Part shown: positions 5,631-18,902 of the stretch, piece after piece | How positions within the stretch are numbered: the stretch's first letter is position 1 | Layout: every line of letters begins with the position of its first letter | Source: Paraglaciecola sp. MB-3u-78 | GTDB taxonomy: Bacteria > Pseudomonadota > Gammaproteobacteria > Enterobacterales > Alteromonadaceae | Direction of reading: 5' to 3' | DNA: 64,000 nt | NCBI RefSeq assembly: GCF_002835935.1 | Contig: NZ_PJCF01000006.1 | Coordinates: 62,001-126,000, forward strand | Made by a program: the position numbers and the translations under genes | The notes under the pieces: generated by a model | The model's input: the letters and a program-made list of their open reading frames with translations, nothing else | Databases searched by the model: none | What the model was told of the DNA's origin: nothing

Positions 5631-7196
5631 TTAATTTTGACTAGTTTGTTGTTGTATAAATGCTCGGGTGTCTTTGAGTAAATCTACCCTTGCTGTCTCG
5701 TTCACATACATCGCATGACCACCGTGATAATAGTGGTATTGGATTTGCTCTGCCTTAATTCCATGACGGTTCAATGTATATTCAGCATCAAAAAAAGGCG
5801 TCACCAAATCATAATATCCCGAGGCAACCATCACTTTAAGTGCAGGGTTAATACGTAAAGCCTTTGATAAGTCATGAGCTGTATTGACGTAAGTTGGCTC
5901 CCAAGCTTTATTTTCTGGTGCGGTACGCCAACTCCATTGATCAGACAATTCATCATCTGCAGGTGCTAAATAAGTGCGATCCCAATTCACCCCTAAATCA
6001 CTGCTAATATAACTCATCAGTGCCGAATTAAAGGCCGATTTAATAGCAAGACCTGCGTCATAATCGGACGTGGCTTTTAAATCGTCAACTTCATCAACAG
6101 TGTAACGTGCGTCTAACAATCCGATGGATAAGCCTTTATCCCGTAAAAGTTCTTTTGCAAAATGAAACCCTTGGATGCGTAATTGGGCCCTATCTATGTA
6201 CGAAGGTGTCAGCCCCGTAAAATAGGCTAATCTATCGCGAATATGATTATGCGTTTTTGTGTCTATGGTGTTGCCTTTAAATAATGCAGGCATTAACTCA
6301 TCAGTTGCAAATGTCCGTGCTTGTGCAAGAAAACTTTCTAAATTTTTAGGTTTTGGCTTGATTTTTCCATGATAAATTGCAGCCGCAGCCATTGTCGGCA
6401 AATAGGTAATATGGGAAATGATATTATCTTTTACGTAGGGAGTTGAGCCTTGATAATCCAAGGCTTGGGAGATAAAAACAATACCATTTAAGCTAATAGA
6501 TAAATCTTTTTCTAAAATTTTAGCCACGGCTGCAGCACGAGTAGTTCCGTAACTTTCGCCCAATAAAAAACGCGGTGAATTCCAACGACCATTAGCTGTT
6601 ATCCAAGTTCTGATGAATTCAGCCATCGAAGTGGCATCTTGTTGTAATCCCCAAAATTCCTTACTTTTATGCTCACCCAGTGCCCGAGAAAACCCAGTGC
6701 CAACGGGATCAATAAATACCAGGTCTGTAACATCGAGTATGGATTCAGATGTATCCAATATGGGATAAGGAGGCGTTCCCGGAAATTGTGCGTCACTAGG
6801 TACTTTGACTCTTTTTGGACCAAAAGCCCCCATATGTAACCATGTCGACGCTGAACCTGGGCCTCCATTCCAAATAAAAGTAACAGGACGAGACTGGCCC
6901 TTCTTTTCATTTTTGGTGTAGGCGAAGGTGAAAATACTGGCTGTTTCTTGGCCGTTTTTGTCCCTCAGATAAGTTTCCCCCGCAGTCACTGTATAATTAA
7001 TGTTCTGACCGTTGAAGCGTCCTTTGTGCTCGCTTACAAATTGCTGAGCTTCAGGTATGGGGTTTGTTTCTGGTTTCGTTTCGGCATTGTCGGCGGCATA
7101 AGCAACACCACTAAACAAAATAATAATACCTAAAAAAATGCATGTAAAAAAAATGTAACTACTCAGCGGGTATAAAGATATTAGGCAGCATGCCAT
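5631..7196 (-). pseudogene. Secreted S10-family serine carboxypeptidase, 5' end displaced by IS66
   Basis: Alpha/beta-hydrolase of the S10 (carboxypeptidase Y-like) family. The oxyanion region is WNGGPGSASTW (about 109-119), the nucleophile is in GESYG (S215), followed by D463 in YYDLVTP and H494 in YHGGH. The body is therefore intact. The first 15 residues of the present frame (MACCLISLYPLSSYI) are IS66 sequence read across the terminal repeat, with only the Ile codon shared. Removing the element and one target duplication restores MQFKIFFTCIFLGIIILFSGVAYAAD, a normal signal peptide, with the native ATG at 8717-8719. The chimeric frame keeps a hydrophobic segment and AYAA cleavage-like site, so export and activity may survive if transcription enters from the IS. 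Native length would be about 511 aa. Confidence 0.8.
7147..7154. repeat. 8-bp target-site duplication, left (IS66 copy 2)
   Basis: AAAAAAAT, identical to 8700-8707. It corresponds to ATTTTTTT within the signal-peptide codons of the S10 peptidase. Confidence 0.9.
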
Positions 7197-8699
7197 TTAA
7201 TAATAACGTTAATGCCGTGGACCCACTGATCCCTTGTTTTTTGCAGCTCGACAGATAGCTACGTAATCCAAAAAACATTTTGGCTCCGTTAGCACTTCTA
7301 AAACATCCCGATATCTTTTGTTGAACCTTTGCCATCCTCAAATCATTTTCGCCCTGATTATTAGTGAATGGCACTGCCTCATCCGTCATGAATCTAAGTA
7401 CATCGCTTTCATAGTTTTGTAATCGCTCAAGTAGGTTACGTGATTGAGTTCTTTTAGGCCGTCCTCGCTTACCTTTCACTGGTATCGGCGCAGGACTTTC
7501 TTTTTCTCCTGCCTTTAAAATCGCTTGATAGTGACGTCGCAAGGTGTCTTGTCTTTCAACACTGAGTAACCCGCCAGCCTTATCTACCTCTTGATTGAGC
7601 TTAACTAAAAACACCCGTATTTCCTCAGCCCAAGCTTGATTATCTTGCTCATACGCTCGAGTTAATTCTCGCAGGTGATGCGCATTGCATAATGAATGTA
7701 GGCACTCATAACGATAATAAGGTTTCCAATGGTCATGGCACATCACACCGTTGAACTGGGGTAATATGTCAATCTCATCCATGGCATCATGGCCTCGTTT
7801 TTCATGGGCTGATAAATACGTCCAATCCAGAGACGAAGCGTTATGTAGCCATTGTCTTTTTCCGTTGATATTGATGCCAGTTTCATCGGTATGTAATGTC
7901 TTTTCTTTTCTCAAGTTCGCTTTGATAATATCTAATGCTTGCGTCTCTTCCAGTTTGGTAAAAGCGGTATTGATAAAGTTGAAAAGACTGCCGCTGCTCA
8001 AAGGTATATTAAGCTGGTCAGTGAAATACTCACGAATGCGCTCATAAGGCAGTAATTGATATTGGGACAGGTAAACCGCATGAGCTTTTAACCCAATACC
8101 ATATTGAATACGGCTATTAACGTCTTGGGGAAATGGGGCAACGAAGCGTTGACCTAACTCATTCTCAAGTATTTGTGCGCGATATTCAGTGACGACACGC
8201 TTAAACTCAATATCGACCACTTGCCGCACCTCTTCACCCATATCAGTATAGTTACCGGGCGGTAAAAGTGTGCTATCAACGATTAATTTATGTGTGATGT
8301 CAGGGTTGTCATCAAGTGGTAGCGTTGTGCCTTTATGCCCCTTTTGTCCACCTGATTTTTTAGTACTGTTGCCTTTTGAATTTTTCTTTCTATTTTGATC
8401 GGACGAGGGCGGTATACTGCTGTTATTACTGTTAAGCCCAAGCCGTTGACAGAGTAACGTGACAATAAGAAGCAATAAATCCATAGCAGTACGCATTGAA
8501 GGTGACAATGTATTGTCCGCTTCAATTTGTGCTTTAATGTTATTGATATTCGACTCAATATCAATGCCGCTTACTTTCATTTAGCCACGTAATTATCGAA
8601 ATAAAACAGTATAATAACGCTTAGAAATGATCAAGCAAGTCGATCATTTTTTAATTTTTGATCGTTAAAAATAAACTAGATTATGTGCTGAGTAGTTAC
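7155..8699 (-). mobile_element. IS66-family insertion sequence, complete (1545 bp), inside a peptidase gene
   Basis: Terminal repeats are GTAACTACTCAGC at 7155-7167 and its exact complement at 8687-8699. The flanks have an identical 8-bp duplication AAAAAAAT (7147-7154 and 8700-8707). The element contains one TnpC-type transposase gene on the minus strand, in the same direction as the interrupted S10 peptidase, so read-through from the IS could transcribe the peptidase body. The ends differ from the first element by C/T at one position (GTAACTAyTCAG), placing both in one IS66 subgroup. Confidence 0.95.
7159..8580 (-). CDS. IS66-family transposase (TnpC type), 473 aa
   Basis: Full-length IS66 DDE transposase. 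It has an N-terminal helical segment, the linker PPSSDQNRKKNSKGNSTKKSGGQKGHKG, and a catalytic core with LHTDETGININGKRQWLHN and MCHDHWKPYYRY-CLHSLCNAHHLREL. The family C-terminal signature is NNQGENDLRMAKVQQKISGCFRS. The protein aligns along its whole length with the transposase at 922-2361 but is clearly diverged from it. The TAG stop at 7159-7161 is embedded in the terminal repeat, as in the first element. The start codon of the chimeric peptidase frame (7196) lies inside this gene, 37 bases before its stop. Confidence 0.94.
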   Translation of the reverse strand: MKVSGIDIESNINNIKAQIEADNTLSPSMRTAMDLLLLIVTLLCQRLGLNSNNSSIPPSSDQNRKKNSKGNSTKKSGGQKGHKGTTLPLDDNPDITHKLIVDSTLLPPGNYTDMGEEVRQVVDIEFKRVVTEYRAQILENELGQRFVAPFPQDVNSRIQYGIGLKAHAVYLSQYQLLPYERIREYFTDQLNIPLSSGSLFNFINTAFTKLEETQALDIIKANLRKEKTLHTDETGININGKRQWLHNASSLDWTYLSAHEKRGHDAMDEIDILPQFNGVMCHDHWKPYYRYECLHSLCNAHHLRELTRAYEQDNQAWAEEIRVFLVKLNQEVDKAGGLLSVERQDTLRRHYQAILKAGEKESPAPIPVKGKRGRPKRTQSRNLLERLQNYESDVLRFMTDEAVPFTNNQGENDLRMAKVQQKISGCFRSANGAKMFFGLRSYLSSCKKQGISGSTALTLLLNGMLPNIFIPAE

Positions 8700-8719: not shown

Positions 8720-9059
8720 GGTAGTGAACTCAATGGAGTAAGGTGGACAATTATAGTAGCACGTTGCAAATTTAATGAGGTCGTAGTCAATTTAAACCTT
8801 TAAACGAACAAGATCAGGAGCCTGATACTTAATGTGACAACGACATCGTTTATCCTATTTGGAGTTAACCGGAATAGGGATACTTGCTCAAAGGCTAGGT
8901 ATTGTGATTCTTAGTTGGCAAAGCCGATGCTTTTGATTTTCTCTCTCCTTCGGCTGAATGCTCGCCGCTTATTTGTTAATTTTTGCAGAGTAATCGTCAT
9001 ACGAACGCTGCGCGGGATGACAATAAGCACAGCGCATATTCCTTTGCTTGTAAAAAACA
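8720..9059. other. Intergenic region, no gene seen
   Basis: This lies between the native start of the S10 peptidase and the 3' remnant of comM. No credible open frame with a start signal is visible on either strand, and I see no strong terminator for comM. Confidence 0.5.
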
Positions 9060-9559
9060 TCAAACATTAGATAACTGTGCCAACATTCGATCAAACGCAC
9101 GATAATTAAGCGCCTCTGCCAAGTGTTTACGACTAATAGTAGGTGCCTGATCCAAATCAGCAATAGTCCGCGATACTTTCAATACTCTATGATAAGTACG
9201 CAGTGACAACCCTAGTTTTTCCACTGCTTGTTGCAAGAATAACTGATCTTCTTTGATTAAGACACATTGTACCTCAACCTCTTTGCTACCGAGTTGCGAA
9301 TTGGTTTTACCGCAGCGATTTAGCTGTAATTGGTGGGCTTGAATAACTCTTTTACGCACCACTTGACTGCTTTCACCGCGACTTTTCACCTGTTCAGAAA
9401 AGTCATTGCTAGGTAGTTTTGGTACATCAACTTGCAAATCAATACGATCTAAAAATGGGCCAGAGATACGATTTAGATAGCGTAGAATTTGTTCGCAGCT
9501 GCTACGGCCATCATTTAAACTCCCCGTGGGACTGGGATTCATAGCCGCGACTAATTGAA
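9060..9559 (-). pseudogene. comM: ComM/YifB Mg-chelatase-like helicase, C-terminal part (split by island)
   Basis: Reading from the junction, the codons give QLVAAMNPSPTGS, then YLNRISGPFLDRIDLQVDVP and the C-terminal Mg-chelatase helical domain (SLRTYHRVLKVSRTIADLD...HLAEALNYRAFDRML). This continues directly from the N-terminal part that stops at 17191. Joining the two at the shared TGAA gives a 504-residue protein, the usual ComM length (E. coli about 506). ComM is a hexameric helicase that drives branch migration during natural transformation. The fragment alone lacks the Walker motifs and cannot function. An internal ATG at 9542 could start a stub. Confidence 0.93.
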
Positions 9560-9582
9560 TGGAATCTGTTTAGTATGAATAA
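9556..9582. other. Left attachment junction of the comM island
   Basis: Core TGAA (9556-9559) joined to comM 3' sequence on the left. Eleven bases further inside is TAGTATGAATAA (9571-9582), exactly the complement of 17166-17177 at the other end. In the excised circle these two arms are separated by 28 bp, and the centre of the dyad falls on the T|G step of the TGAA core. Confidence 0.8.
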
Positions 9583-9772
9583 TAAGAATGGGTTTATTAC
9601 AATAAAGAGGTCAAAACAACTCTGCCATTATAAATGCTCGATAGGGCTTATCTGGTAAGCACCTGTATAAAGTTCTCTACTACATAATATCTTAGTAAAT
9701 AGAGTCTCTATAAACAAAATAGGCTTTATTTCATGATAATATGTTTACTAAATTCATATTAAAAGGAATTGC

Positions 9773-10681
9773 ATGAGTAAAAAATTCAGTAAAATAGCTA
9801 AGTTATCTGCGCCTGAGATAAGACTAACTAAGCCTCATGATTTTGATATCTCACATGAAGAAGAATATAAAGGTTTTAAAGTTACACTTCCTGATGAAGG
9901 TAGATTCAAACGCGATGGTATTTATATAGTTCAGATTATGGATAAGCTACTTAGCTTCTTGATGTGGTTATGCGCAAGGCACAACGAAGTTTTAATCATT
10001 AGATATGACTTGTATTTGAGTAACTCTAAAATAGAATTGAAGGACTTAAACACTGACCTATTTAAAAAGCTTAGGAAGGTTAAAAATCCAGATACTAAAG
10101 AACTTATCTTCCAAGACATTCAATATGTATGGGCTAGAGAGTTAGGCACCCACGAAGCCAATATGGGTATACATTATCACTTTACCTGTGGGTTCAGAAT
10201 GCCTAATAGACTTAAGGTGAAGCAAATAACTGATAGATACCAAGAAATAGCAACTAAAGTATTAGAAGATAAAACTAAAGTTACTTTGTCTGATGAACTA
10301 AAGCCTTACATTAAAGTGAATGGTTATTTTCTATTAAAGCGAGAAATGTTATCTAAGGAAATGGCTGAACAGCAAGCTAAGGATATGGTTCAACAAATAG
10401 CGACTGGGGAAGGCTATAGGTACTTAAGAACCAACATTATTGAGACAAGGAAGAAAAATGAAGGCAAGCCTATTGGAGGCGTACTAGAAGAGTGTGTCTA
10501 TGCTCTGAGCTATCTGGCCAAATACGTGACTAAAGACTATATGCGCAAAGGCCTTAAAGTATATGGCTCATCTAGCTTTAGGGATAAATCAAATATGCTC
10601 CCAACTAGAAAAGACCAGATAGACGAATTCACAGTGAAAATTGAGAAGCTCTTTTCAGAATATAATACAAAGCAAGAATGA
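9773..10681 (+). CDS. HUH-type rolling-circle replication initiator, Inovirus Gp2 (YagK/YfjJ)-like, 302 aa
   Basis: Probable replication initiator that nicks one strand and stays linked to the 5' end. The HUH metal motif is HYH at residues 134-136 in GIHYHFTCGF. The catalytic tyrosine motif is YLAKY (Y247, Y251) followed by VTKD, the same spacing as the paired tyrosines YxxxY of the phiX174 gene A superfamily. The overall pattern resembles YagK/YfjJ-type Inovirus Gp2 proteins found in cryptic prophages. The start is supported by AAAGGA seven bases upstream. It is the first gene of the island. A replication role for the excised circle is inferred; a mobilisation relaxase role is the alternative. 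Confidence 0.7.
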   Translation: MSKKFSKIAKLSAPEIRLTKPHDFDISHEEEYKGFKVTLPDEGRFKRDGIYIVQIMDKLLSFLMWLCARHNEVLIIRYDLYLSNSKIELKDLNTDLFKKLRKVKNPDTKELIFQDIQYVWARELGTHEANMGIHYHFTCGFRMPNRLKVKQITDRYQEIATKVLEDKTKVTLSDELKPYIKVNGYFLLKREMLSKEMAEQQAKDMVQQIATGEGYRYLRTNIIETRKKNEGKPIGGVLEECVYALSYLAKYVTKDYMRKGLKVYGSSSFRDKSNMLPTRKDQIDEFTVKIEKLFSEYNTKQE

Positions 10682-11161
10682 GGGGGGGTCTAGGGTAACT
10701 CAAGTGCTTAACCACCTCTCGCATATACACTAAAAAAGTAAATTCTTTAAAAATACAATCAACAACAGTGTATCAATACCTAGCAATGCCCTTCAGAAGC
10801 CCTCAAAAGCCCGTGACAGCGTTATTAATCATAATACATGCCAATGCCTAGGTTTATAGTTAAAATTGCTTAGAGGCACTGTTAGTTGACTGTTAAGTTT
10901 TTTAATAAGCCCTGTTGAAATATACTTCCTCAATAGATTAAGCTTCAGTCAAGGTTTGGCCTTGCATCATCAAATTACTGCTAAATAACTAATCTAGCTA
11001 TAGTGGCGTTAACAATCACAGTCACGCAAAGCGTTTATGCAAATCCAACTATAAGGCCAGTGAGAGTAGCGTAAATAAAGATAAGTCGAGCCGGATAAAA
11101 AACTATACAGTAGAAGTCAGTAAGGCTTTTGAGTTACACAATTAAAGAATAAGGAAATGAC
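10682..11161. other. Intergenic region of the island holding repeat copy 1
   Basis: 480 bases without a credible gene. It holds repeat copy 1, the 10-bp inverted element CTTAACCACC, and the promoter/ribosome-binding region of the next gene (AAGGA before ATG 11162). It is a candidate origin region for the replication protein just upstream. Confidence 0.5.
10796..10897. repeat. Long direct repeat, copy 1 (about 102 bp)
   Basis: GAAGCCCTC...GTTAAG. It matches 12571-12671 with about a dozen differences and one 1-base gap. The copies stand on either side of the zinc-ribbon gene. No open frame is shared, so a structural or origin role is more likely than coding. CTTAACCACC at 10707-10716 upstream is the complement of GGTGGTTAAG at 12511-12520. 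Confidence 0.85.
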
Positions 11162-12499
11162 ATGGCACTATTTGACTGCCCAGAATGCAATGCCAATATA
11201 AGCGATAAGGCCATAGCCTGCCCTAAGTGTGGCTGCCCAGTAGAGCAAAAAATCCAAAGGTTAGAGGATGCATTTACTAAGCCCGCTCTAGCCAAAAACC
11301 TAACTGTTGTAACGGCGCATTTCCAGAAAAGCTCACGCCCTTTAAATAATCAGGTGAATGGGTGCTTTATTGGTGAGGCGAATCCTGATATTTATGTTGA
11401 GGATGGGGATTTAAGCATTACTATGAATGAGCTGGGCCTAGTCATTAGTAGTGGCCCACTAATTGCTTATACAATCCACTTTTCGCAACTCGTAGACATT
11501 TCAATTGAGAATCAAAAATCAATTATTAATAAAGAGCGGGCGACTTTGGGGCGCGCAGCTATTGGTGGGGTGTTGTTTGCTGGAGTGGGTGCGATTGCAG
11601 ATGCAGTTACAGGTCAAGGGCAGTTTAAGTCGAAACTCTATGATGGAGTGCTCATTTTAACTTACCTTGAACCCAGCGAAAATAAGTTGATACAGCTGAT
11701 ATTAGTGATTGAATTATCCACCAATAATGCAGTCATAGAGCTTATTAAGTCACTCCTTAACAAGTACCATACTGACAAACACCTAGCTCTTGACAAACAC
11801 CAAGCTGCTGAGGAAAACGGGGCGCTTTGGTTTCAGTTTAAGGAAGATGCAAAGAGCACTAAGGAAGATGCAAAGGGTATCTTAGGCGCCATTTCGCCAG
11901 TCATGGCCTCTATTAAAGCTTACTTTAAAAAAATCCACGCCAATAAAAAAACAACAATTGAAAAAACTACTACTGACAAAAAATCCACAGATTTAGAATA
12001 CTCGTGGCATATCGAGAAGGCCATAGATAAGCAATTACCACTACCAGTTGATAATAGTGCAGATGATAAGGCAGCCCTTGAAAGCAGTAGCGAGAGCAAG
12101 CTAAATATTTGGGGCGATATTAAGGCTCATCCTTTTGTTTGGGTTTTTGTTGTTGTTGTCTTCTTTGCTATATTTGGAGGTCAGTCTGGGTATGACGACC
12201 AAGACCTTTCCAGAAGCACTAAAATTGACTTATGTAAAAAGTACATAGCCTCAGAATTTGGAAGACCCCTATCTTCTATGCGTAGCGGCTCTGTAACTCA
12301 AGACTCCGGCTTCTTTGTCGAGATTAGTTATACGCGCCGAAGCGATAATTCCAACTGGAAGAATGTGTGTCACATATCCAATAACGAGATATTATGGGCG
12401 TCAGTTGACAGTTATGGCAATACGGGGCGGTGGAGATACGAGGACACTAAGAATCTAAAATACAAAAAGAATGGAGAGGACTTTACAGTTTCATTTTAA
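11162..12499 (+). CDS. Zinc-ribbon membrane protein of unknown function, 445 aa
   Basis: Not a family I can name. An N-terminal zinc ribbon (C6, C9, C20, C23: CPECNANISDKAIACPKCGCP) is followed by a region resembling a bacterial PH-like fold, with GRAAIGGVLFAGVGAIADAVTG inside it. A Lys/Thr-rich linker (about 235-290) leads to one strongly hydrophobic helix, HPFVWVFVVVVFFAIFGG (about 322-340). A C-terminal domain of about 100 residues follows (DLCKKYIASEFGRPLSS...). This suggests a single-pass membrane protein, possibly a sensor or surface-exclusion factor of the island. AAGGA lies eight bases before the ATG. It is flanked by the two 102-bp repeats, which could make it a separately gained cargo cassette. 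Confidence 0.6.
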   Translation: MALFDCPECNANISDKAIACPKCGCPVEQKIQRLEDAFTKPALAKNLTVVTAHFQKSSRPLNNQVNGCFIGEANPDIYVEDGDLSITMNELGLVISSGPLIAYTIHFSQLVDISIENQKSIINKERATLGRAAIGGVLFAGVGAIADAVTGQGQFKSKLYDGVLILTYLEPSENKLIQLILVIELSTNNAVIELIKSLLNKYHTDKHLALDKHQAAEENGALWFQFKEDAKSTKEDAKGILGAISPVMASIKAYFKKIHANKKTTIEKTTTDKKSTDLEYSWHIEKAIDKQLPLPVDNSADDKAALESSSESKLNIWGDIKAHPFVWVFVVVVFFAIFGGQSGYDDQDLSRSTKIDLCKKYIASEFGRPLSSMRSGSVTQDSGFFVEISYTRRSDNSNWKNVCHISNNEILWASVDSYGNTGRWRYEDTKNLKYKKNGEDFTVSF

Positions 12500-12570
12500 C
12501 AATAAACTAAGGTGGTTAAGTCTGGCGTAATAATCGAAATGTATCAAAAACAACATAGAAATAGGCGCAG

Positions 12571-12671
12571 GAAGCCCTCAGAAGCCCGTGACAGCCTTAT
12601 TATGCATAATACATACCAATCTTAGGTTTACAGTTAAAACCTCTTAGAGGCACTGTTAGTTGATTGTTAAG
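12571..12671. repeat. Long direct repeat, copy 2 (about 101 bp)
   Basis: Same orientation as 10796-10897. Conserved blocks include AAGCCCGTGACAG, CATAATACAT and TTAGAGGCACTGTTAGTTGA. It contains the palindrome TTATGCATAA. Its end abuts the stop codon of the small minus-strand ORF at 12674-12853. Confidence 0.85.
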
Positions 12672-12673
12672 CT

Positions 12674-12853
12674 TCAGTCTATTCTATTGAATAACTCAAC
12701 TATTGATTCTATTAACAAAGTTTGTTTATGGGTTAGATTAAGTAAATCCCCACCAGTATCAGAACTACACACTAGCTCTTCTATCTGCTTCTGAGCTAAA
12801 TTAGCATCCTCTAACGCTAGCCGTATCACTTCCATCCCAATATTATTAGACAT
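12674..12853 (-). CDS. Small hypothetical protein, 59 aa
   Basis: Unrecognised. The frame MSNNIGMEVIRLALEDANLAQKQIEELV...ESIVELFNRID is acidic and predicted helical, without membrane segment or cysteine motif. AGGGA lies seven bases before the ATG at 12853, a good ribosome-binding site. It is divergent from the resolvase gene and ends three bases after repeat copy 2. Amphipathic-helix content would suit a small regulator or antitoxin-like partner, but there is no toxin-like neighbour to confirm that. Confidence 0.5.
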   Translation of the reverse strand: MSNNIGMEVIRLALEDANLAQKQIEELVCSSDTGGDLLNLTHKQTLLIESIVELFNRID

Positions 12854-13046
12854 AATTAATTCCCTGTAATCACTGTAAGCACTGCTTGAAGTTTAGGTGC
12901 CTTATCTCGTATTTCCAATAAATAACATTCTGCCCTCATTCCTGCCTGTCAGGACTAGCCCAACCCTCTTGGCATAAAGTGTCAGATATTAACCATAAAT
13001 ACTAAGCATTTATCATGTGTACGTTCATAATATACATGGCAGATAA

Positions 13047-13086
13047 GGACATGCTCAAATATCCTTTGATATATGATTTGGACATG
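13047..13086. promoter_or_regulatory. Candidate resolvase binding (res-like) site
   Basis: Two direct GGACATG motifs (13047-13053 and 13080-13086) flank a short dyad ATATC-CTTT-GATAT (13059-13072), ending about 50 bases before the resolvase start. Small serine recombinases of the Tn3/Hin type commonly act at sites beside their own gene and repress it. The assignment is by position and repeat structure only. Confidence 0.35.
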
Positions 13087-13134
13087 TTATATTAACCCTG
13101 TCCATAACTTTTAACTTTTGAGCGGGGGTGTAAC

Positions 13135-13692
13135 ATGGCGCTAGTCGGTTTTGCAAGGGTATCAACAAGAGAGCAGGATTTAGAAATACAGCTTGAAGCA
13201 TTGAGCGCTATAGGTTGTGATAAAATCTTTCATGGTAAGCAGTCTGGTGTATCTAAGCAGAATACAATTAAGCTAGCTGAGCTGGTGGAGTATGTCAGAG
13301 CGGGGGATATAGTAGTAACAACTAAGCTAGACCGTCTAGGGCGCTCTCTCAAGGCTATATTAGAGGTCTTGCAGCAACTTAGGGATAAGGGTGTTCAGTT
13401 TAAAACGTTAGACAATGCCATCGACACCACTAATGAAAGTCCTTTTGCTCAAGCTCAAATTTCAATGATAGCTACATTTGCGCAGTTAGAGCGTGATTTG
13501 ATAGCTCAGAGAACTGGAGAGGGAAGAGAAGCTGCTAAAGCTAATGGCGTAAAGTTTGGGCGTAAGTCAATATTGAGTGATGACAAGAAGCAAGAGATTA
13601 AAGGGAAGCTTAAGAAGGGCGCAACGGTTTACAGGTTGGCTATTGATTATGATGTTAGTAGGCAGACGATTATGAGGGTTAGGGATAATTAA
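13135..13692 (+). CDS. Small serine recombinase, resolvase/invertase type, 185 aa
   Basis: Site-specific recombinase of the Tn3 resolvase/Hin family. The catalytic domain starts MALVGFARVSTREQDLEIQ with the nucleophile at Ser10, followed by KLDRLGRS and AQLERDLIAQRTGEGREAAKANGVKFGRK. The C-terminal helix-turn-helix is YRLAIDYDVSRQTIMRVR. Length is normal for the family. GGGGGTG lies about five bases before the ATG. It could resolve multimers of the circular form of the element or invert a segment. It is too short to be the integrase, and the large recombinase at 15491 fills that role. Confidence 0.92.
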   Translation: MALVGFARVSTREQDLEIQLEALSAIGCDKIFHGKQSGVSKQNTIKLAELVEYVRAGDIVVTTKLDRLGRSLKAILEVLQQLRDKGVQFKTLDNAIDTTNESPFAQAQISMIATFAQLERDLIAQRTGEGREAAKANGVKFGRKSILSDDKKQEIKGKLKKGATVYRLAIDYDVSRQTIMRVRDN

Positions 13693-14064
13693 GAGCTACT
13701 GTTTATAGATAGACCAGATATTTGAAATTTCTAAAAGGTTTGATATTTGGCACTGGGTTTGGTGTTAAGCGCTCATGTATGTAGCTGTAGGGATATAGTA
13801 ATTTACTCACTCAATCACCATTTACACAAGTCTCATAGGCAGCTAAGTGCCAAAAGCCGTCATTCGCCATTGATTTTGTAATCACAATAAGTTTCAATAA
13901 AGCTGACTGTGAATTAACTGGCTTGCTAAATAGTTTCTACTTAAATTGACTGTATACAAAATCAGGTATAATGAAATTTATTGAATAATGTCTATTTCGC
14001 TTACTATTGTGTAATTTTGTCTGTTGTTTAGTATGCTGCAGTGGCTATTTTAAGAGGGTTGTAT
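13693..14064. other. Intergenic region of the island, no gene seen
   Basis: AT-rich stretch between the resolvase and the split zinc-ribbon peptide. No open frame with a convincing start, no repeat and no terminator that I can identify. Confidence 0.4.
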
Positions 14065-14226
14065 ATGTCAGTATTATCTTGTCCAAAATGTGAAAGCTTA
14101 GCTAATGGAAGTCGGGGGTTCATAATGTGGTTTTTTGTGGTTGTGCTTTTCCCTATTGGTCTTTTGCTTTTGTTGTTAAAACCAAAATATACATGCACTA
14201 AATGTGGGTTTATGTTTAAACAGTAA
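14065..14226 (+). CDS. Split zinc-ribbon membrane peptide (LITAF-like), 53 aa
   Basis: The frame reads MSVLSCPKCESLAN, then a long hydrophobic stretch (FIMWFFVVVLFPIGLLLLLL), then KYTCTKCGFMFK. Two CxxC knuckles separated by a membrane-inserting hydrophobic segment form the LITAF-like arrangement, in which the two halves make one zinc ribbon at the membrane face. AGAGGG lies eight bases before this ATG, so it is preferred to the in-frame GTG at 14041. Function is unknown. It is the second zinc-ribbon membrane protein in the island. Confidence 0.6.
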   Translation: MSVLSCPKCESLANGSRGFIMWFFVVVLFPIGLLLLLLKPKYTCTKCGFMFKQ

Positions 14227-14344
14227 TGTTTGGTTTGAAGCATGTTATCGTTTGATAAAATAAAATCTATTACAGGCAATAATCACACAAGGCCTAGGAG
14301 CTGAGATTAAGAAAGAGTTGTTATTTGAATTTTTCGTTTTTCTT

Positions 14345-15157
14345 CTAATAGTGGAAAGTTTCGACAACACAATCTACTTCAGCATTCAAAGATGTTTGAG
14401 TCATAGTTTCAATGTCGTAGACCAATATTTTTGAGCGTCTACCTACATCAATGCGCGCTCCTATGTCGTCTCTCAAATTTACTCTTGTTTTAAATGCAGC
14501 CCAATTGTCTTTCATTCTTAGGGGGTCATGAAGATTTGCCGAACTGCTTATATCTTTACTCTCCGACAAGCAATCTTCAACCTGTTTTTTTAGCTCTGAA
14601 AGTGAGGCTGGTACTGAGCTCATGATAAAAAGCCCAGATTGCTTATTTGCTTTGAGTTCTAAGTCCAGTTTGACAGAAGCAATTAGGAACTTCACCTTAG
14701 GCAATAACAGGTCTATCGTTTCAGTTATATTAAGCAGCCTAGGCAAAGTATCGCTGCCTAATCCAGTGCCGCTCATCGTTAACAGGTTCTTTAGTCGCTC
14801 GTGACGATATGTGGTATTTTTTAGCATTGATTCAGCCTTTAGCGGATGGTCTGTGGTGATTGCCACACTCACGGCAGTGAAAACCCAGTTGTAAACTGAT
14901 GCACAGTCCTCAAGAGTTTTGGTTTTAATGCCACTCCACTTCTTCTTTTCTCTCCAGCTCAAGTAAGTTGCGATTATTCCATAAGTCATTAAGGCATCTA
15001 AAAGCAGAGGTAAAGCATACTTAATTAGTAAACCAACGGTTGTCTCTGCTTCTTTACTGTCTGATACCCAACTTATCACCCAGAATGAGCTAATAAGCAG
15101 TCCCAAAAATAAGCCCATAAAAAGCGCAACTACTTCACTCTTGTTTATCCCTTTCAT
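14345..15157 (-). CDS. Hypothetical membrane protein, 270 aa
   Basis: Unrecognised. Two N-terminal hydrophobic helices (about 8-32 and 42-66) are followed by WREKKKW and a soluble, mostly helical domain of about 200 residues containing LLPKVKFLIASVKLDLELKAN and VPASLSELKKQVEDCLSES. The arrangement is that of a two-pass anchor with a cytoplasmic domain. The ribosome-binding site (GGAAAATA) is weak. It lies between the zinc-ribbon peptide and the integrase, convergent with the former. It may be an accessory or defence-like cargo gene, but nothing in the sequence identifies a catalytic site. Confidence 0.5.
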   Translation of the reverse strand: MKGINKSEVVALFMGLFLGLLISSFWVISWVSDSKEAETTVGLLIKYALPLLLDALMTYGIIATYLSWREKKKWSGIKTKTLEDCASVYNWVFTAVSVAITTDHPLKAESMLKNTTYRHERLKNLLTMSGTGLGSDTLPRLLNITETIDLLLPKVKFLIASVKLDLELKANKQSGLFIMSSVPASLSELKKQVEDCLSESKDISSSANLHDPLRMKDNWAAFKTRVNLRDDIGARIDVGRRSKILVYDIETMTQTSLNAEVDCVVETFHY

Positions 15158-15490
15158 TTTATATTTTCCATAGTGTTACACCTCATGGCGAATAAAGTTT
15201 GCTCCGAATCATTGGCAGTAAATTCGCCACGCTCAAAGGTAGCACATTGACTTTAATTGGTAATTAAATAAAACCAGATATGATTACTTTCAAGCAGTCA
15301 GCTTCATGAATTGAAGTTACTTAAGCGTGAAGTGCTTATGTAGCAAAAAATAGGTGATATTGACTGCTACAAAAAGTGCTACACATTTTGCTCTCAAATG
15401 CCTTAGAGTAGCTGTCTAGCTAACAAATTGAATGAACAAGATTAGTTGGAGTAGGCTTATCGGCTGACTGCTGCTAGTTCCTTCTCTGAG
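15158..15490. other. Intergenic region of the island, no gene seen
   Basis: About 330 bases between the hypothetical membrane protein and the integrase stop. It is AT-rich with several short CTACAAAAAGTGCTACA-like repeats near 15365-15385 but no convincing frame. Confidence 0.4.
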
Positions 15491-17134
15491 TTACGCTCCG
15501 TCTAATCCTGATGGTGGGAGTTCACCTTCTTCGAGTAATTCGGCAGCAAAAAAGTCCTTCAAATTGCTTGAGAAGTCCTCCCAAGTCACGAAATCTAAAC
15601 TGGTCTTTGCGCATAGACCGTCCCTATTTATTGCTATCTTTTCAATCCTCTTTTTTCCAGAGAATGACCTCTCAATAAAGTAGCATTTGTTTGAAGTTGA
15701 CCTCTTTAATAGTTTTATAAAACAAGTCTCATCCTTTAAATTTGTAACTGACAATTCATCACCTAATACAATCATTTTGTAGCCTAACTTTATTAAGCTC
15801 TCCCGTCTGAGTGTCGGGTCCCTAACGACGGATTCGTACTTGCTTATCACTTCATCAACTCCATGCTCACTAGAGAGCTCCTCTTGCTTTAAAGATGCAA
15901 TCTGCTGCTCTATACGACGTCTTTCAAGGCCGTATTCTCTGATAGAGTTTGTTATCTCAACTATTTCCAAGTCTTTACCTAAAGTCTCTGCTACTTTCTT
16001 TAATTTATTAATCTTCGGAGAAATCGCATCCAACTCATCTTTTAAATTGGTAATTTTAATTGTATTAGAGTGGAAGTCTTTTCTTGATGCTAGAGATAAT
16101 ATGTAGCTTGAATAGGTCTCTCTGTAAACAAAAGAAAGCACCTCGTATGGCCAAGTTTTATTATTGTCGCAGTAGATTTTACCCCTCTTAAGATAGGTGC
16201 TGCAGTTTGCGTATGTAATTGTATAGTCGTTGTGTTTCTTTCGTCTATAATGAAATCTACGACCGCATTTCCCGCAAATTAATATGCCAGATAAATCATA
16301 AGTTTTGGGTGGGCTTGGAGTCAGTTTTCTATGTTTGATTTCGCGTTGTAAAGTAAAGTATTCGTCATTACTTATTAGCGCTTCAAAAACATTGCTGATG
16401 GCGTGCTCCTTCGTATGCCACTCGCCAATAATAGCAGGGTTAGAGAACCATCGATTCAAAGTTGTTGGGTGTACGCCTTCTAAGTGTTTAAATTGTCTTT
16501 GAAGCTTTAAAATAATTGCTCTAGCACCTAAGCCATTTAGGTATTCTGCTATGCAAGCCTTAACCATAGTTGCATGTTCCGAGATTAGTTTTCCATCACT
16601 GGTTAGCCATACAGGGTTTAGTTTTTTAACAGGCCCACCAGCTAGGGCTATACTCCTCTTGTTTTTATGGGCTTCAATCAACCTGCCTGATAGTCTATTT
16701 GAGTATTCATATGCTTGTTGTACTTTCCCTGCCAAGATAAAAAGAGCAGAGCCGCCACCATTTAATGCTGCTGTTGAGTACTCCTGATTATCTTCTAATG
16801 TAACAATAATGATTCCTGCCTTACATATTGGTATTAAAAGTGTAATCATATCCATAGGAGGTAATCTGCCAAGTCTATCAATAGCCTCCACCAGTAAATA
16901 ATCACCAGCTTGAATTTCCCCAGTTTCAATAGCTCTTAATATTGCGCCAAACCCTTGTTCCAAATGCTCGCCTTTATAACCACTTGCAGCTTTGTCTATC
17001 CTAGACAAGTGAGATTCTTCAATTTCAGGGTGGCCAACCAGCCATCTGTTAATTCTTTCTTGTTGGCGCTCTATTGTTGAGCCTTTTTCTTGGTGAGATG
17101 CTGAGAATCTCATGTAGCTTATCGCTTTAGACAT
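15491..17134 (-). CDS. Large serine recombinase (integrase of the island), 547 aa
   Basis: Integrase/excisionase of the element. The N-terminal resolvase domain starts MSKAISYMRFSASHQEKGSTIERQQ with nucleophile Ser11 and contains EAIDRLGRLPPMDM. A recombinase domain follows (about 165-275: NPVWLTSDG..HPTTLNRWFSNPAIIGEW). The zinc ribbon has C287, C290, C311 and C322. A long coiled-coil region lies at about 350-430, as in phage-type serine integrases. It sits at the right end of the island, its start 56 bases from the TGAA core at the comM junction. Serine integrases need no host factor, but excision normally needs a separate directionality factor; none is evident unless one of the small genes serves. 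Confidence 0.95.
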   Translation of the reverse strand: MSKAISYMRFSASHQEKGSTIERQQERINRWLVGHPEIEESHLSRIDKAASGYKGEHLEQGFGAILRAIETGEIQAGDYLLVEAIDRLGRLPPMDMITLLIPICKAGIIIVTLEDNQEYSTAALNGGGSALFILAGKVQQAYEYSNRLSGRLIEAHKNKRSIALAGGPVKKLNPVWLTSDGKLISEHATMVKACIAEYLNGLGARAIILKLQRQFKHLEGVHPTTLNRWFSNPAIIGEWHTKEHAISNVFEALISNDEYFTLQREIKHRKLTPSPPKTYDLSGILICGKCGRRFHYRRKKHNDYTITYANCSTYLKRGKIYCDNNKTWPYEVLSFVYRETYSSYILSLASRKDFHSNTIKITNLKDELDAISPKINKLKKVAETLGKDLEIVEITNSIREYGLERRRIEQQIASLKQEELSSEHGVDEVISKYESVVRDPTLRRESLIKLGYKMIVLGDELSVTNLKDETCFIKLLKRSTSNKCYFIERSFSGKKRIEKIAINRDGLCAKTSLDFVTWEDFSSNLKDFFAAELLEEGELPPSGLDGA

Positions 17135-17165
17135 ATATAATTATTAGCTTTTACTAATTTATAAG

Positions 17166-17194
17166 TTATTCATACTATCATGATTGTATCTGAA
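17166..17194. other. Right attachment junction of the comM island
   Basis: TTATTCATACTA (17166-17177), then 13 bases, then core TGAA (17191-17194) joined to the comM 5' part. The arm is the exact complement of 9571-9582. Reconstructed attB in comM codes for PARFQLVAAMNPSP, the conserved segment of Mg-chelatase AAA proteins. Confidence 0.8.
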
Positions 17195-18209
17195 ATCTTG
17201 CAGGAAATTGTGCTTGCCTCGCGGCTCTGGAAATACTCACCGTGCCTGATTCTAAAGGCTCTCGCAATACATCCAATACTTTGCGGTCAAACTCCGGTAA
17301 TTCGTCAAGAAATAGCACGCCATTGTGGGCCAGCGAAATTTCACCCGGCCTAGGTATGCTTCCCCCTCCAACTAAAGCTACCGCAGAACTGGTGTGGTGT
17401 GGATGGCGAAAAGCCCGTTGCTTCCAAGTGGCAGGGTCAACAGGTTTACCCACAATCGAATGAATCGCCGCTGAGGCTAAGGCTTCTTCATCTGTCATTG
17501 GAGGCAAAATCGTAATGAGGCGACTTGCCAACATAGTTTTACCTGTGCCAGGCGGGCCGGTAAATAACAAATTGTGTCCACCCGCGGCGGCAATCTCCAA
17601 GGCACGTTTGCCGGCTGCCTGACCAACCACGTCTTGCAGGTCATTTTCATAAGATGCTTGTTCTTCTAGGGATTGTGCTTGGTATAGATCAAGGACGCGT
17701 TGCCCGGCTATATGATGAAATACATCTAATAATTGGCTAGCAGGTAAAATTTTTGCATCTTTAATCAACGATGCCTCAGCCGCATTTTCGACGGGCAATA
17801 TCGCTATACGATTGGCTTGTGAGCACGCGTAGGTAAAAGGTAAGGCACCAGTTATGGAGCGAATCTCTCCAGATAAAGCCAGCTCCCCCACTAGCTCGAT
17901 ATTGCCTAGCTGGTTGTCGGTTAGTTGGTTACTTGCTGCGATAATGCCTATGGCAATGGCTAAATCAAAACGCCCGCCTTCTTTGGGTAAGTCCGCAGGC
18001 GCTAAATTAACTGTGATACGTTTAGCGGGGAATTCAAAGCCAGAATTAATTAATGCACTGCGGACTCGGTCTTTTGCCTCTCGTACAGATGCTTCTGGCA
18101 ACCCGACTAAGTTAAAGCAGGGTAGGCCGTTGGATAGGTGCACTTCAACGGTAATAAGGGGGGCGTCAATGCCTACGCTTGCTCTTGAATAAACAACGGC
18201 TAATGACAT
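17191..18209 (-). pseudogene. comM: ComM/YifB Mg-chelatase-like helicase, N-terminal part (split by island)
   Basis: Starts [30 protein letters not shown] and includes the N-terminal Lon-like fold ([23 protein letters not shown]). The AAA+ core has Walker A GPPGTGKT, Walker [11 protein letters not shown] and FRHPHHTSS. It reads to PARFQ, where the island begins; the frame then closes after three foreign codons (IQS) at 17178. The sensor/arginine-finger and C-terminal domain are on the distant fragment at 9060-9559. The loss predicts reduced natural transformation and branch migration while the island is integrated, reversible by precise excision. ATG 18209 is preferred over an adjoining TTG because the family begins MSL. 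Confidence 0.94.
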
Positions 18210-18272
18210 CAAGCAACTCCATTTGCGAACAGGGTGAGTCTTAAGGCTAGCTAATCATCATAAAATTGCGAG

Positions 18273-18902
18273 TTATTCATCCTTCACTGAATCGTGAGGG
18301 TTAAAGACAGGAAGATGCCAGTTCCACTTCATCGCGCAGAGACGACAGGCTAAGGTGATGCAGAAGGTTATTATCATGCAACTGACGGTACTCAAACCTA
18401 ATTGAAAACCTAAGATGTAACTCGCCCCGCCTAAAACACAAGCGGTAGCATATAGTTCACCTTTTAAAACCATTGGAATTTCTCGGCAAATTACATCGCG
18501 GATCAATCCCCCAAAGACTGCTGTCATAGTGCCTAATGCAATCGCTACAAGAGGAGAGGCGCCGTAAGTCATTGCTTTTTGTAAGCCCATCACATTAAAA
18601 AACGCTAAACCAAAAGCATCGGCGAAAAACAGGTAACGCAGTGGGAACGTGTCTTTGCTACGTAACCATATGATTGTGGAAAAGGCTGCGAGGATAATCA
18701 CATAGAAAAAACTAGGATCTTGTACCCAAAAAACCGGTAAGTCTAAAATCATATCCCTTAGGGTGCCACCGCCAATGGCAGTAACCGACGCAAGTACCAC
18801 CACACCAAAGCCATCCATGTGTTTTTTATATGCCATCAGTGTACCTGCGATAGCAAACACCGCGACACCCGCTAAATCCACCCAATGTAACCAAGTTTCC
18901 AT
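18273..18902 (-). CDS. Trimeric intracellular cation (TRIC) channel family protein (YicG/YadS-like), 209 aa
   Basis: Inner-membrane protein with about seven hydrophobic helices and the internal repeat typical of this family. The first repeat has GVAVFAIAGTLMAYKKHMDGFGVVVLASVTAIGGGTLRDMIL, and the second has LGTMTAVFGGLIRDVICREIPMVL. The GGG(T/L)xRD motifs are the family signature. Bacterial relatives are trimeric monovalent-cation channels related to animal TRIC. Length is normal. It lies 63 bases downstream of the comM start on the same strand and is transcribed towards it, so the two may share an operon. Confidence 0.9.
   Translation of the reverse strand: METWLHWVDLAGVAVFAIAGTLMAYKKHMDGFGVVVLASVTAIGGGTLRDMILDLPVFWVQDPSFFYVIILAAFSTIIWLRSKDTFPLRYLFFADAFGLAFFNVMGLQKAMTYGASPLVAIALGTMTAVFGGLIRDVICREIPMVLKGELYATACVLGGASYILGFQLGLSTVSCMIITFCITLACRLCAMKWNWHLPVFNPHDSVKDE

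What the first reader, a model, noticed from the sequence alone, without database searches (positions are those of the whole stretch)
9556..17194. Serine-integrase island in comM with a reconstructable symmetric attP
The two comM halves join at TGAA to give a 504-residue ComM with conserved PARFQLVAAMNPSP. Joining the two island ends gives an attP with perfect 12-bp inverted arms (TAGTATGAATAA and complement) separated by 28 bp; the dyad centre falls on the TG step of the same TGAA core. This is strong internal evidence for the exact integration point. comM is a known target for Tn7-like islands in Acinetobacter, but targeting of this conserved AAA+ codon block by a large serine integrase appears unusual. 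The insertion should switch off a transformation helicase and be reversible.
Basis: partly seen in the sequence, partly recalled or inferred. Interest (0 to 1): 0.8.

Follow-up and report, generated by a model that had tools for sequence, protein, structure and literature searches.

The report
Integrase-carried mobile island inside comM gene
A 7.6 kb mobile DNA element in a marine Paraglaciecola-like bacterium has inserted itself at one exact spot in comM, a gene for taking up foreign DNA; comM is already known as a favourite target of this integrase class, so this is an ordinary example, though at a spot within the gene not met elsewhere in this survey.

Summary
A 7,635-bp island with an apparently complete large serine integrase splits comM at a shared TGAA. 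Joining the flanks restores an in-frame ComM, and the 21 other genomes of the genus searched carry comM uninterrupted there. Joining the island ends gives an attP whose perfect 12-bp arms lie at positions 15-26 from a dyad on the TG step. The zinc-ribbon domain of the A118/LI integrase reads positions 16-24 of its attP (PMC3783163).

The judgement 'unusual' is wrong. A published survey reports that genes annotated magnesium chelatase/ATP-dependent protease (the annotation class ComM/YifB falls in) are hit by 12.4% of predicted site-specific integrases of this class (PMC10083194). Here, 10 of 45 integrase relatives in other genomes lie beside a comM piece, broken at two other codon blocks (about residues 66 and 214). 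The island's site (about residue 341) was seen only in the window, and its integrase is divergent.

Loss of ComM function is likely but inferred. Reversibility is untested, and no excision factor was recognised. Verdict: new member of a known kind.

The parts
17191..18212 (-). 5' part of comM (residues 1 to about 341); its open frame runs 13 bp into the island and stops, giving a 344-aa remnant (17178-18212)
9060..9559 (-). 3' part of comM (about residue 340 to the end), Mg_chelatase_C domain
9556..9559 (.). TGAA crossover core at the left junction
17191..17194 (.). TGAA crossover core at the right junction
9571..9582 (.). attP arm TAGTATGAATAA (positions 15-26 from the dyad)
17166..17177 (.). 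attP arm TTATTCATACTA, perfect reverse complement of the other arm
9537..9543 (.). ATTCATA (reverse complement TATGAAT) in the attB-derived flank: seven bases of the attP arm, 4 bp nearer the core; they lie in codons of the AAMNP block
15491..17134 (-). large serine integrase, 547 aa: Resolvase N-terminal domain, Recombinase domain, zinc ribbon; 56 bp between its start codon and the right core
9773..10681 (+). 302-aa probable HUH (rolling-circle type) replication protein: HYH at 134-136, YLAKY at 247-251; weak matches to REP_ORF2-G2P and YagK_YfjJ_C, both under Pfam's cut-offs
11162..12499 (+). 445-aa protein, N-terminal zinc-ribbon-like segment (under Pfam's cut-offs) and a hydrophobic stretch; phage family of unknown function phrog_17658 (5.4e-12)
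12674..12853 (-). 59-aa open frame, no PHROGs or PADLOC match; an unproven candidate for a small accessory or excision factor
13135..13692 (+). 185-aa small serine resolvase/invertase (the HTH_7 match is just under its cut-off)
14041..14226 (+). small CxxC..CxxC membrane-like protein (61 aa from GTG); no reliable family
14345..15157 (-). 270-aa protein with N-terminal hydrophobic segments, no family match
10796..10900 (.). 105-bp direct repeat, copy 1
12571..12674 (.). direct repeat, copy 2 (88% identical)

Best explanation
A small integrative element (7,635 bp) entered comM by conservative attP x attB recombination catalysed by its own large serine integrase. The half-sites meet at TGAA with the TG step as the probable exchange dinucleotide. 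On attP the integrase dimer would read the two identical arms at positions 15-26 with its zinc-ribbon domains. On attB it would use comM codons, with TATGAAT of the AAMNP block as a possible motif on one side. Insertion cuts ComM at about residue 341 and should abolish its helicase, lowering transformation with divergent DNA and so the chance that the element is replaced by homologous recombination. Shown: junction, in-frame empty site, attP symmetry, integrase domains. Inferred: catalysis, loss of ComM function, benefit to the element, ability to excise.
For: Junction and restored reading frame; intact comM in 21 of 21 other genomes of the genus searched; attP arms at 6.5e-6 by chance, covering the positions that the zinc-ribbon domain of LI integrase reads, 16-24 (PMC3783163 passages); three Pfam domains of a large serine integrase over their cut-offs, phrog_95 integrase 6.5e-47, PDB matches at E 0.01 only to A118 integrase fragments; integrase start 56 bp from the junction; 8 other integrases at a second comM site and 2 at a third; one of them, G128, gives a 13-bp perfect arm pair at positions 13-25 of a dyad near its junction, although its core is not settled. 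ComM loss lowers transformation by two orders of magnitude for a non-homologous insert (PMC11472951 passages, citing other work). The genome keeps a ComEC.
Against: The attB motif shift is 4 bp, not the 5 bp of the LI model (score at 5 bp is 2 of 12), and only one half-site shows it. The other comM elements did not give clean cores and arms by script: of 8 tested, G128 and less clearly G403 gave longer arms, 6 did not, and the script also chose a wrong core for the window itself, which was solved by direct inspection. No excision factor recognised. Integrase activity, excision and competence of the host are untested; ComEC also rings in 10 of 14 control genomes, E. coli among them, so it does not show competence.
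Confidence: 0.9

Rival explanations
1. A regulated switch: the element leaves comM under some conditions and restores it, as comK prophages are known to do (recalled), so comM is held off reversibly.
For: Both att sites, the coding frame and the integrase are intact.
Against: No excision factor identified; no read data. Intact sites with a short core follow from any recent integration, regulated or not.
Confidence: 0.12
2. An immobile remnant: integrated by the serine integrase, but unable to leave now.
For: No recognised excision factor; no relative of the island DNA in the plasmid collection and none of the replication protein in the 393 other genomes of the order sampled.
Against: Integrase frame and domains complete, both att sites intact, arms perfect.
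Confidence: 0.3
3. A Tn7-like comM insertion of the AbaR kind.
For: Such elements do sit in comM in this order: TnsA, TniB, TniQ and rve/Mu-type transposase genes beside comM breaks at about residues 284 (L138) and 305 (L141).
Against: None of those families was found in the island's proteins; different site; integrase-type att symmetry.
Confidence: 0.01
4. The exchange dinucleotide is GA or AA within TGAA rather than TG.
For: The four shared bases cannot separate these.
Against: attP symmetry is 18 of 30 at T/G against 8 and 10 of 30 at G/A and A/A.
Confidence: 0.08

Closest known systems
Large serine integrases that target the Mg-chelatase/ATP-dependent protease gene (survey in PMC10083194)
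   Same: Same enzyme class; target gene annotated as the family that ComM/YifB belongs to; there 12.4% of predicted site-specific integrases (passage).
   Different: Whether any of them uses the codons found here was not seen: the survey's att tables were not available to me. The integrase here has a highest identity of 27% to the 45 others in the alignment of the tree (short local matches reach 37%) and 33% to the best plasmid-collection hit.
Wolbachia phage WO, sr1WO group (PMC9203015; also PMC5447182)
   Same: Serine recombinase, insertion in or beside the Mg-chelatase gene (passages).
   Different: A tailed prophage; no structural genes were recognised in this island.
Serine-integrase elements at comM sites I and II in this order (L048, L050, L054, L056, L058, L060, L101, L104, L107) and class (L145)
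   Same: Integrase beside a comM break.
   Different: Break at about residue 66 (2) or 214, just before Walker A (8), not 341; none is the sister of the window's integrase in the tree (L145 was not in it).
Tn7-like comM islands (AbaR and relatives)
   Same: Break comM.
   Different: Tn7-type transposition genes; sites at about 284 and 305 in the two confirmed here.

Membership tests
Large serine integrase | Resolvase catalytic domain, Recombinase domain and zinc ribbon in one protein of about 450-650 aa | tested here: met
   547 aa; PF00239, PF07508, PF13408 all over cut-off
Large serine integrase | attP about 50 bp, pseudo-palindromic, attB sharing only a short core | tested here: met
   52 bp between outer arm ends, TGAA core
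Large serine integrase | attB zinc-ribbon motif displaced 5 bp inward from its attP position (LI model) | tested here: inconclusive
   7 of 7 bases at 4 bp inward on one half only, nothing at 5 bp; chance of such a run per half 0.0009 for shifts 4-5 and 0.0039 for shifts 0-8
Large serine integrase | Catalyses attP x attB recombination | not testable with these tools
   needs an assay
comM-targeting serine-integrase elements | Element bounded by attL/attR within comM, empty site in relatives | tested here: met
Tn7-like comM island | TnsA/TniA/TniB/TniQ genes | tested here: not met
   six island proteins scanned; compare
Inovirus prophage | Replication protein plus Zot-type ATPase and coat proteins | tested here: not met
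   Only a weak G2P-like replication protein; no Zot or coat family among the proteins scanned; frames under 59 aa were not scanned
Integrated rolling-circle plasmid | HUH replication protein | tested here: inconclusive
   HYH and YxxxY motifs, Pfam matches under cut-off; fold prediction failed (pLDDT 36)
Regulated gene switch (comK type) | Conditional precise excision | not testable with these tools
   no reads or cultures

The most novel reading that the evidence does not exclude
comM is a gene with several independent serine-integrase docking sites, each on a conserved codon block, and this lineage has independently evolved attP arms that match the Met-Asn codons of the AAMNP (sensor-1) block, so that the target cannot easily mutate away without loss of ComM; the element gains by blocking the recombination that would remove it.
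Probability: 0.25. Interest if true: 0.5.

Novelty: new member of a known kind. Interest (0 to 1): 0.27.

Why it matters
It adds an integrase, divergent from those in this survey, with a predicted attP/attB pair (useful as a recombination tool if active), and a third serine-integrase site in comM beside the two met in the same survey. That at least two recombinase classes break comM at five positions (about 66, 214, 284, 305, 341) fits the published idea that mobile elements gain by disabling transformation (PMC4774983 and PMC11472951, passages).

Tried and rejected
Rejected: 'unusual target'. Rejected: Tn7-like origin. Rejected: inovirus prophage. Rejected: defence island; PADLOC gave only weak matches (CasR 0.0041, LmuB 0.0021). 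No Rfam match in 9000-18300, no tRNA and no tandem repeat in the window.

Led nowhere: close integrase relatives in genome contigs and viral contigs: none. Replication protein in viral contigs, phages, plasmids and the 393 other genomes of the order sampled: none. Island DNA in plasmids: none. Fold of the replication protein: mean pLDDT 36, not used. Automatic core finder for the other comM elements: unreliable, also wrong for the window. Short C-terminal comM frames, whose match list was cut: of 8 followed up, 2 were frameshifts (L134, L140) and 6 break at about residue 284 or 305; for 4 of these 6 the 5' piece was not in the fetched stretch; Tn7-like genes were confirmed by Pfam for 2 of them (L138, L141).

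Sampling limits: the 45 integrases in other genomes were found by similarity to the window's integrase, not drawn at random. About 10 kb on either side, less at contig ends, was fetched for 44 of them and about 1.5 kb for L145. So 10 of 45 is a lower bound for that set and not a rate for all integrases.

Literature limits: searches. I found no mention of a serine-integrase attB at these comM codons, but I saw only passages (PMC9203015, PMC5447182, PMC4774983, PMC10083194, PMC3783163, PMC11472951; a term search of PMC8649781 for comM/yifB found nothing) and no supplement.
Full report
WHAT IS THERE. The island runs from TGAA at 9556-9559 to TGAA at 17191-17194 (7,635 bp). comM is on the minus strand, its 5' part at 17191-18212 and its 3' part at 9060-9559. 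Joined, they encode a continuous ComM of 505 aa from TTG, 504 from the next Met. The host is Paraglaciecola-like: ComM of the same-genus genome G019 (L023) is 93% identical to the window's joined ComM and 100% identical to that of Paraglaciecola arctica BSs20135.

EMPTY SITE. Of 22 genomes of the genus searched, own included, 22 have the 5' part. In the 21 others ComM is continuous over the whole length (81-93% identity) and all 21 carry F-Q-L-V/I-A-A-M-N-P at the junction. No second comM was seen in the genome.

attP. The joined island ends give 12-bp perfect arms at positions 15-26 on either side of T/G; 18 of 30 positions are symmetric at that centre against 6 to 13 at the seven neighbouring centres tried. 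A perfect run of 12 or more arose in 13 of 2,000,000 random sequences of island composition; the test was designed after seeing the arms. In the A118/LI integrase structure the zinc-ribbon domain reads positions 16-24 of attP (PMC3783163, passages), so the arms lie where an integrase needs them. The same paper predicts the motif 5 bp further in on attB. Here TATGAAT, seven bases of the arm, occurs 4 bp further in on the left attB half. The chance of such a run per half-site is 0.0009 for shifts 4-5 and 0.0039 for shifts 0-8, measured on 42,400 half-sites from the window. The right half shows no run over 3 bases at any shift from 0 to 9, and at exactly 5 bp the left half scores 2 of 12, so this is suggestive only. 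TATGAAT lies in the codons for A-M-N-P; 12 of 21 relatives have ATGAAT and 3 of 21 TATGAAT.

INTEGRASE. 547 aa with Resolvase (1.8e-13), Recombinase (1.1e-5) and zinc-ribbon (9.3e-11) domains, all over Pfam's cut-offs; phrog_95 integrase 6.5e-47. By sequence the only solved relatives at E 0.01 are A118 integrase fragments. It is divergent: best identity 27% in the alignment of the tree (up to 37% over short local matches), 33% over 84% of its length to an integrase beside phage genes in a Pseudomonas aeruginosa record labelled plasmid. Genomes with a match, own included each time: 13 of 118 relatives at 1e-5, 33 of 394 of the order at 1e-8, 2 of 369 of the class at 1e-20.

comM AS A TARGET. 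I took all 44 integrase places in other genomes that searches listed, with about 10 kb on either side or less at contig ends, plus the one (L145, about 1.5 kb on either side). Nine of the 44 and the one more lie beside a comM piece: 10 of 45. The second Recombinase-domain protein of the window's own genome (L044) does not. For the nine, breaks are at about residue 66 in two genomes (G031, G073) and about 214, just before the Walker A motif, in seven (G035, G071, G099, G080, G403, G395, G128); L145 has a comM piece from residue 212. Both pieces were found in eight of the nine, in G403 and G128 on different contigs; in G395 only the 5' piece was found, and the other piece was not sought for L145. 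None is at the window's site, about residue 341. In a tree of 46 integrases (L145 not included) the window's falls with four from the same family (support 100/98) that have no comM in the fetched stretch; two of these (L084, L085) share neighbours, a PurF-like gene and a membrane gene (names recalled from sequence, no family search). The window's branch is long (2.1), so its place is not firm. Site II integrases are not shown to be one clade or several. That targeting of site III arose separately is the simplest reading but was not tested formally.

TN7-LIKE ELEMENTS. Eight short C-terminal comM frames from the listed part were followed up: two are frameshifts; five in one family break at about 284 (in L136 the pieces overlap at 271-284) and one, from the window's family, at about 305. 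L138 and L141 carry TnsA, TniB, TniQ and an rve/Mu-type transposase; L136 has frames alike in size and sequence; L135, L137 and L139 were not examined for these genes. So at least two recombinase classes break comM.

WHAT IS IN PRINT. [quoted passage not shown] PMC9203015 (passages): most sr1WO recombinases integrate in the magnesium chelatase gene. PMC4774983 (passages): elements in comM in Aggregatibacter, Acinetobacter, Mannheimia, Francisella and Pseudomonas, explained as avoidance of removal by recombination. PMC11472951 (passages): comM inactivated in 22% of the A. baumannii strains studied; its loss lowers transformation by two orders of magnitude for a non-homologous segment and has a very minor role with identical DNA in V. 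cholerae. That the first two papers' annotations mean the YifB/ComM family is an inference here, supported by the NCBIfam name of the window's gene.

CARGO. A probable HUH replication protein (weak matches, HYH and YxxxY motifs); a small resolvase (42-46% to Pasteurellaceae and Arcobacter plasmid resolvases in the 10 rows listed of 227 records, most of which are Staphylococcus); a zinc-ribbon-like protein between two 105-bp direct repeats that were found nowhere else in the genome at E 0.01; and unknown, partly membrane-type proteins. No virion, conjugation, resistance or reliable defence gene was recognised among the proteins scanned. The likeliest type is an integrative plasmid-like element; that part is inference. 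G+C is 38.0% against 41.8% for the rest of the window.

VERDICT. The surprise it claimed is not: this gene is among the best-known targets of the class. What remains of interest is a divergent integrase with a clean predicted att pair at a comM site not met elsewhere in this survey.

Noticed in passing
window 10796-10900 and 12571-12674: Two 105-bp direct repeats (88%) flank the 445-aa zinc-ribbon gene; only these two copies were found in the genome. They could be origins, recombination sites or the scar of a cassette duplication.
   Followed up: partly
window 7159-8580: IS66-family transposase gene about 480 bp downstream of the comM 3' end.
   Followed up: no
L048 (G035), L060 (G071), L101 (G403), L104 (G395), L107 (G128), L054 (G099), L058 (G080), L145 (G680): Serine integrases beside comM broken at codons just before the Walker A motif (about residue 214), in several families of the order and one further genome of the class; G128 gives 13-bp perfect arms about a dyad near its junction.
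   Followed up: partly
L050 (G031), L056 (G073): Serine integrases beside comM broken at about residue 66.
   Followed up: partly
L141 (G022, same family): Tn7-like element (TnsA, TniB, TniQ) beside comM at about residue 305, with what looks by eye like a DNA methyltransferase gene and other cargo.
   Followed up: partly
L144 (Pseudomonas aeruginosa record NZ_CP137508.1): The closest integrase in the plasmid collection (33%) sits at the start of a run of phage genes (baseplate, tape measure) with chromosomal-type neighbours, in a record labelled plasmid.
   Followed up: partly
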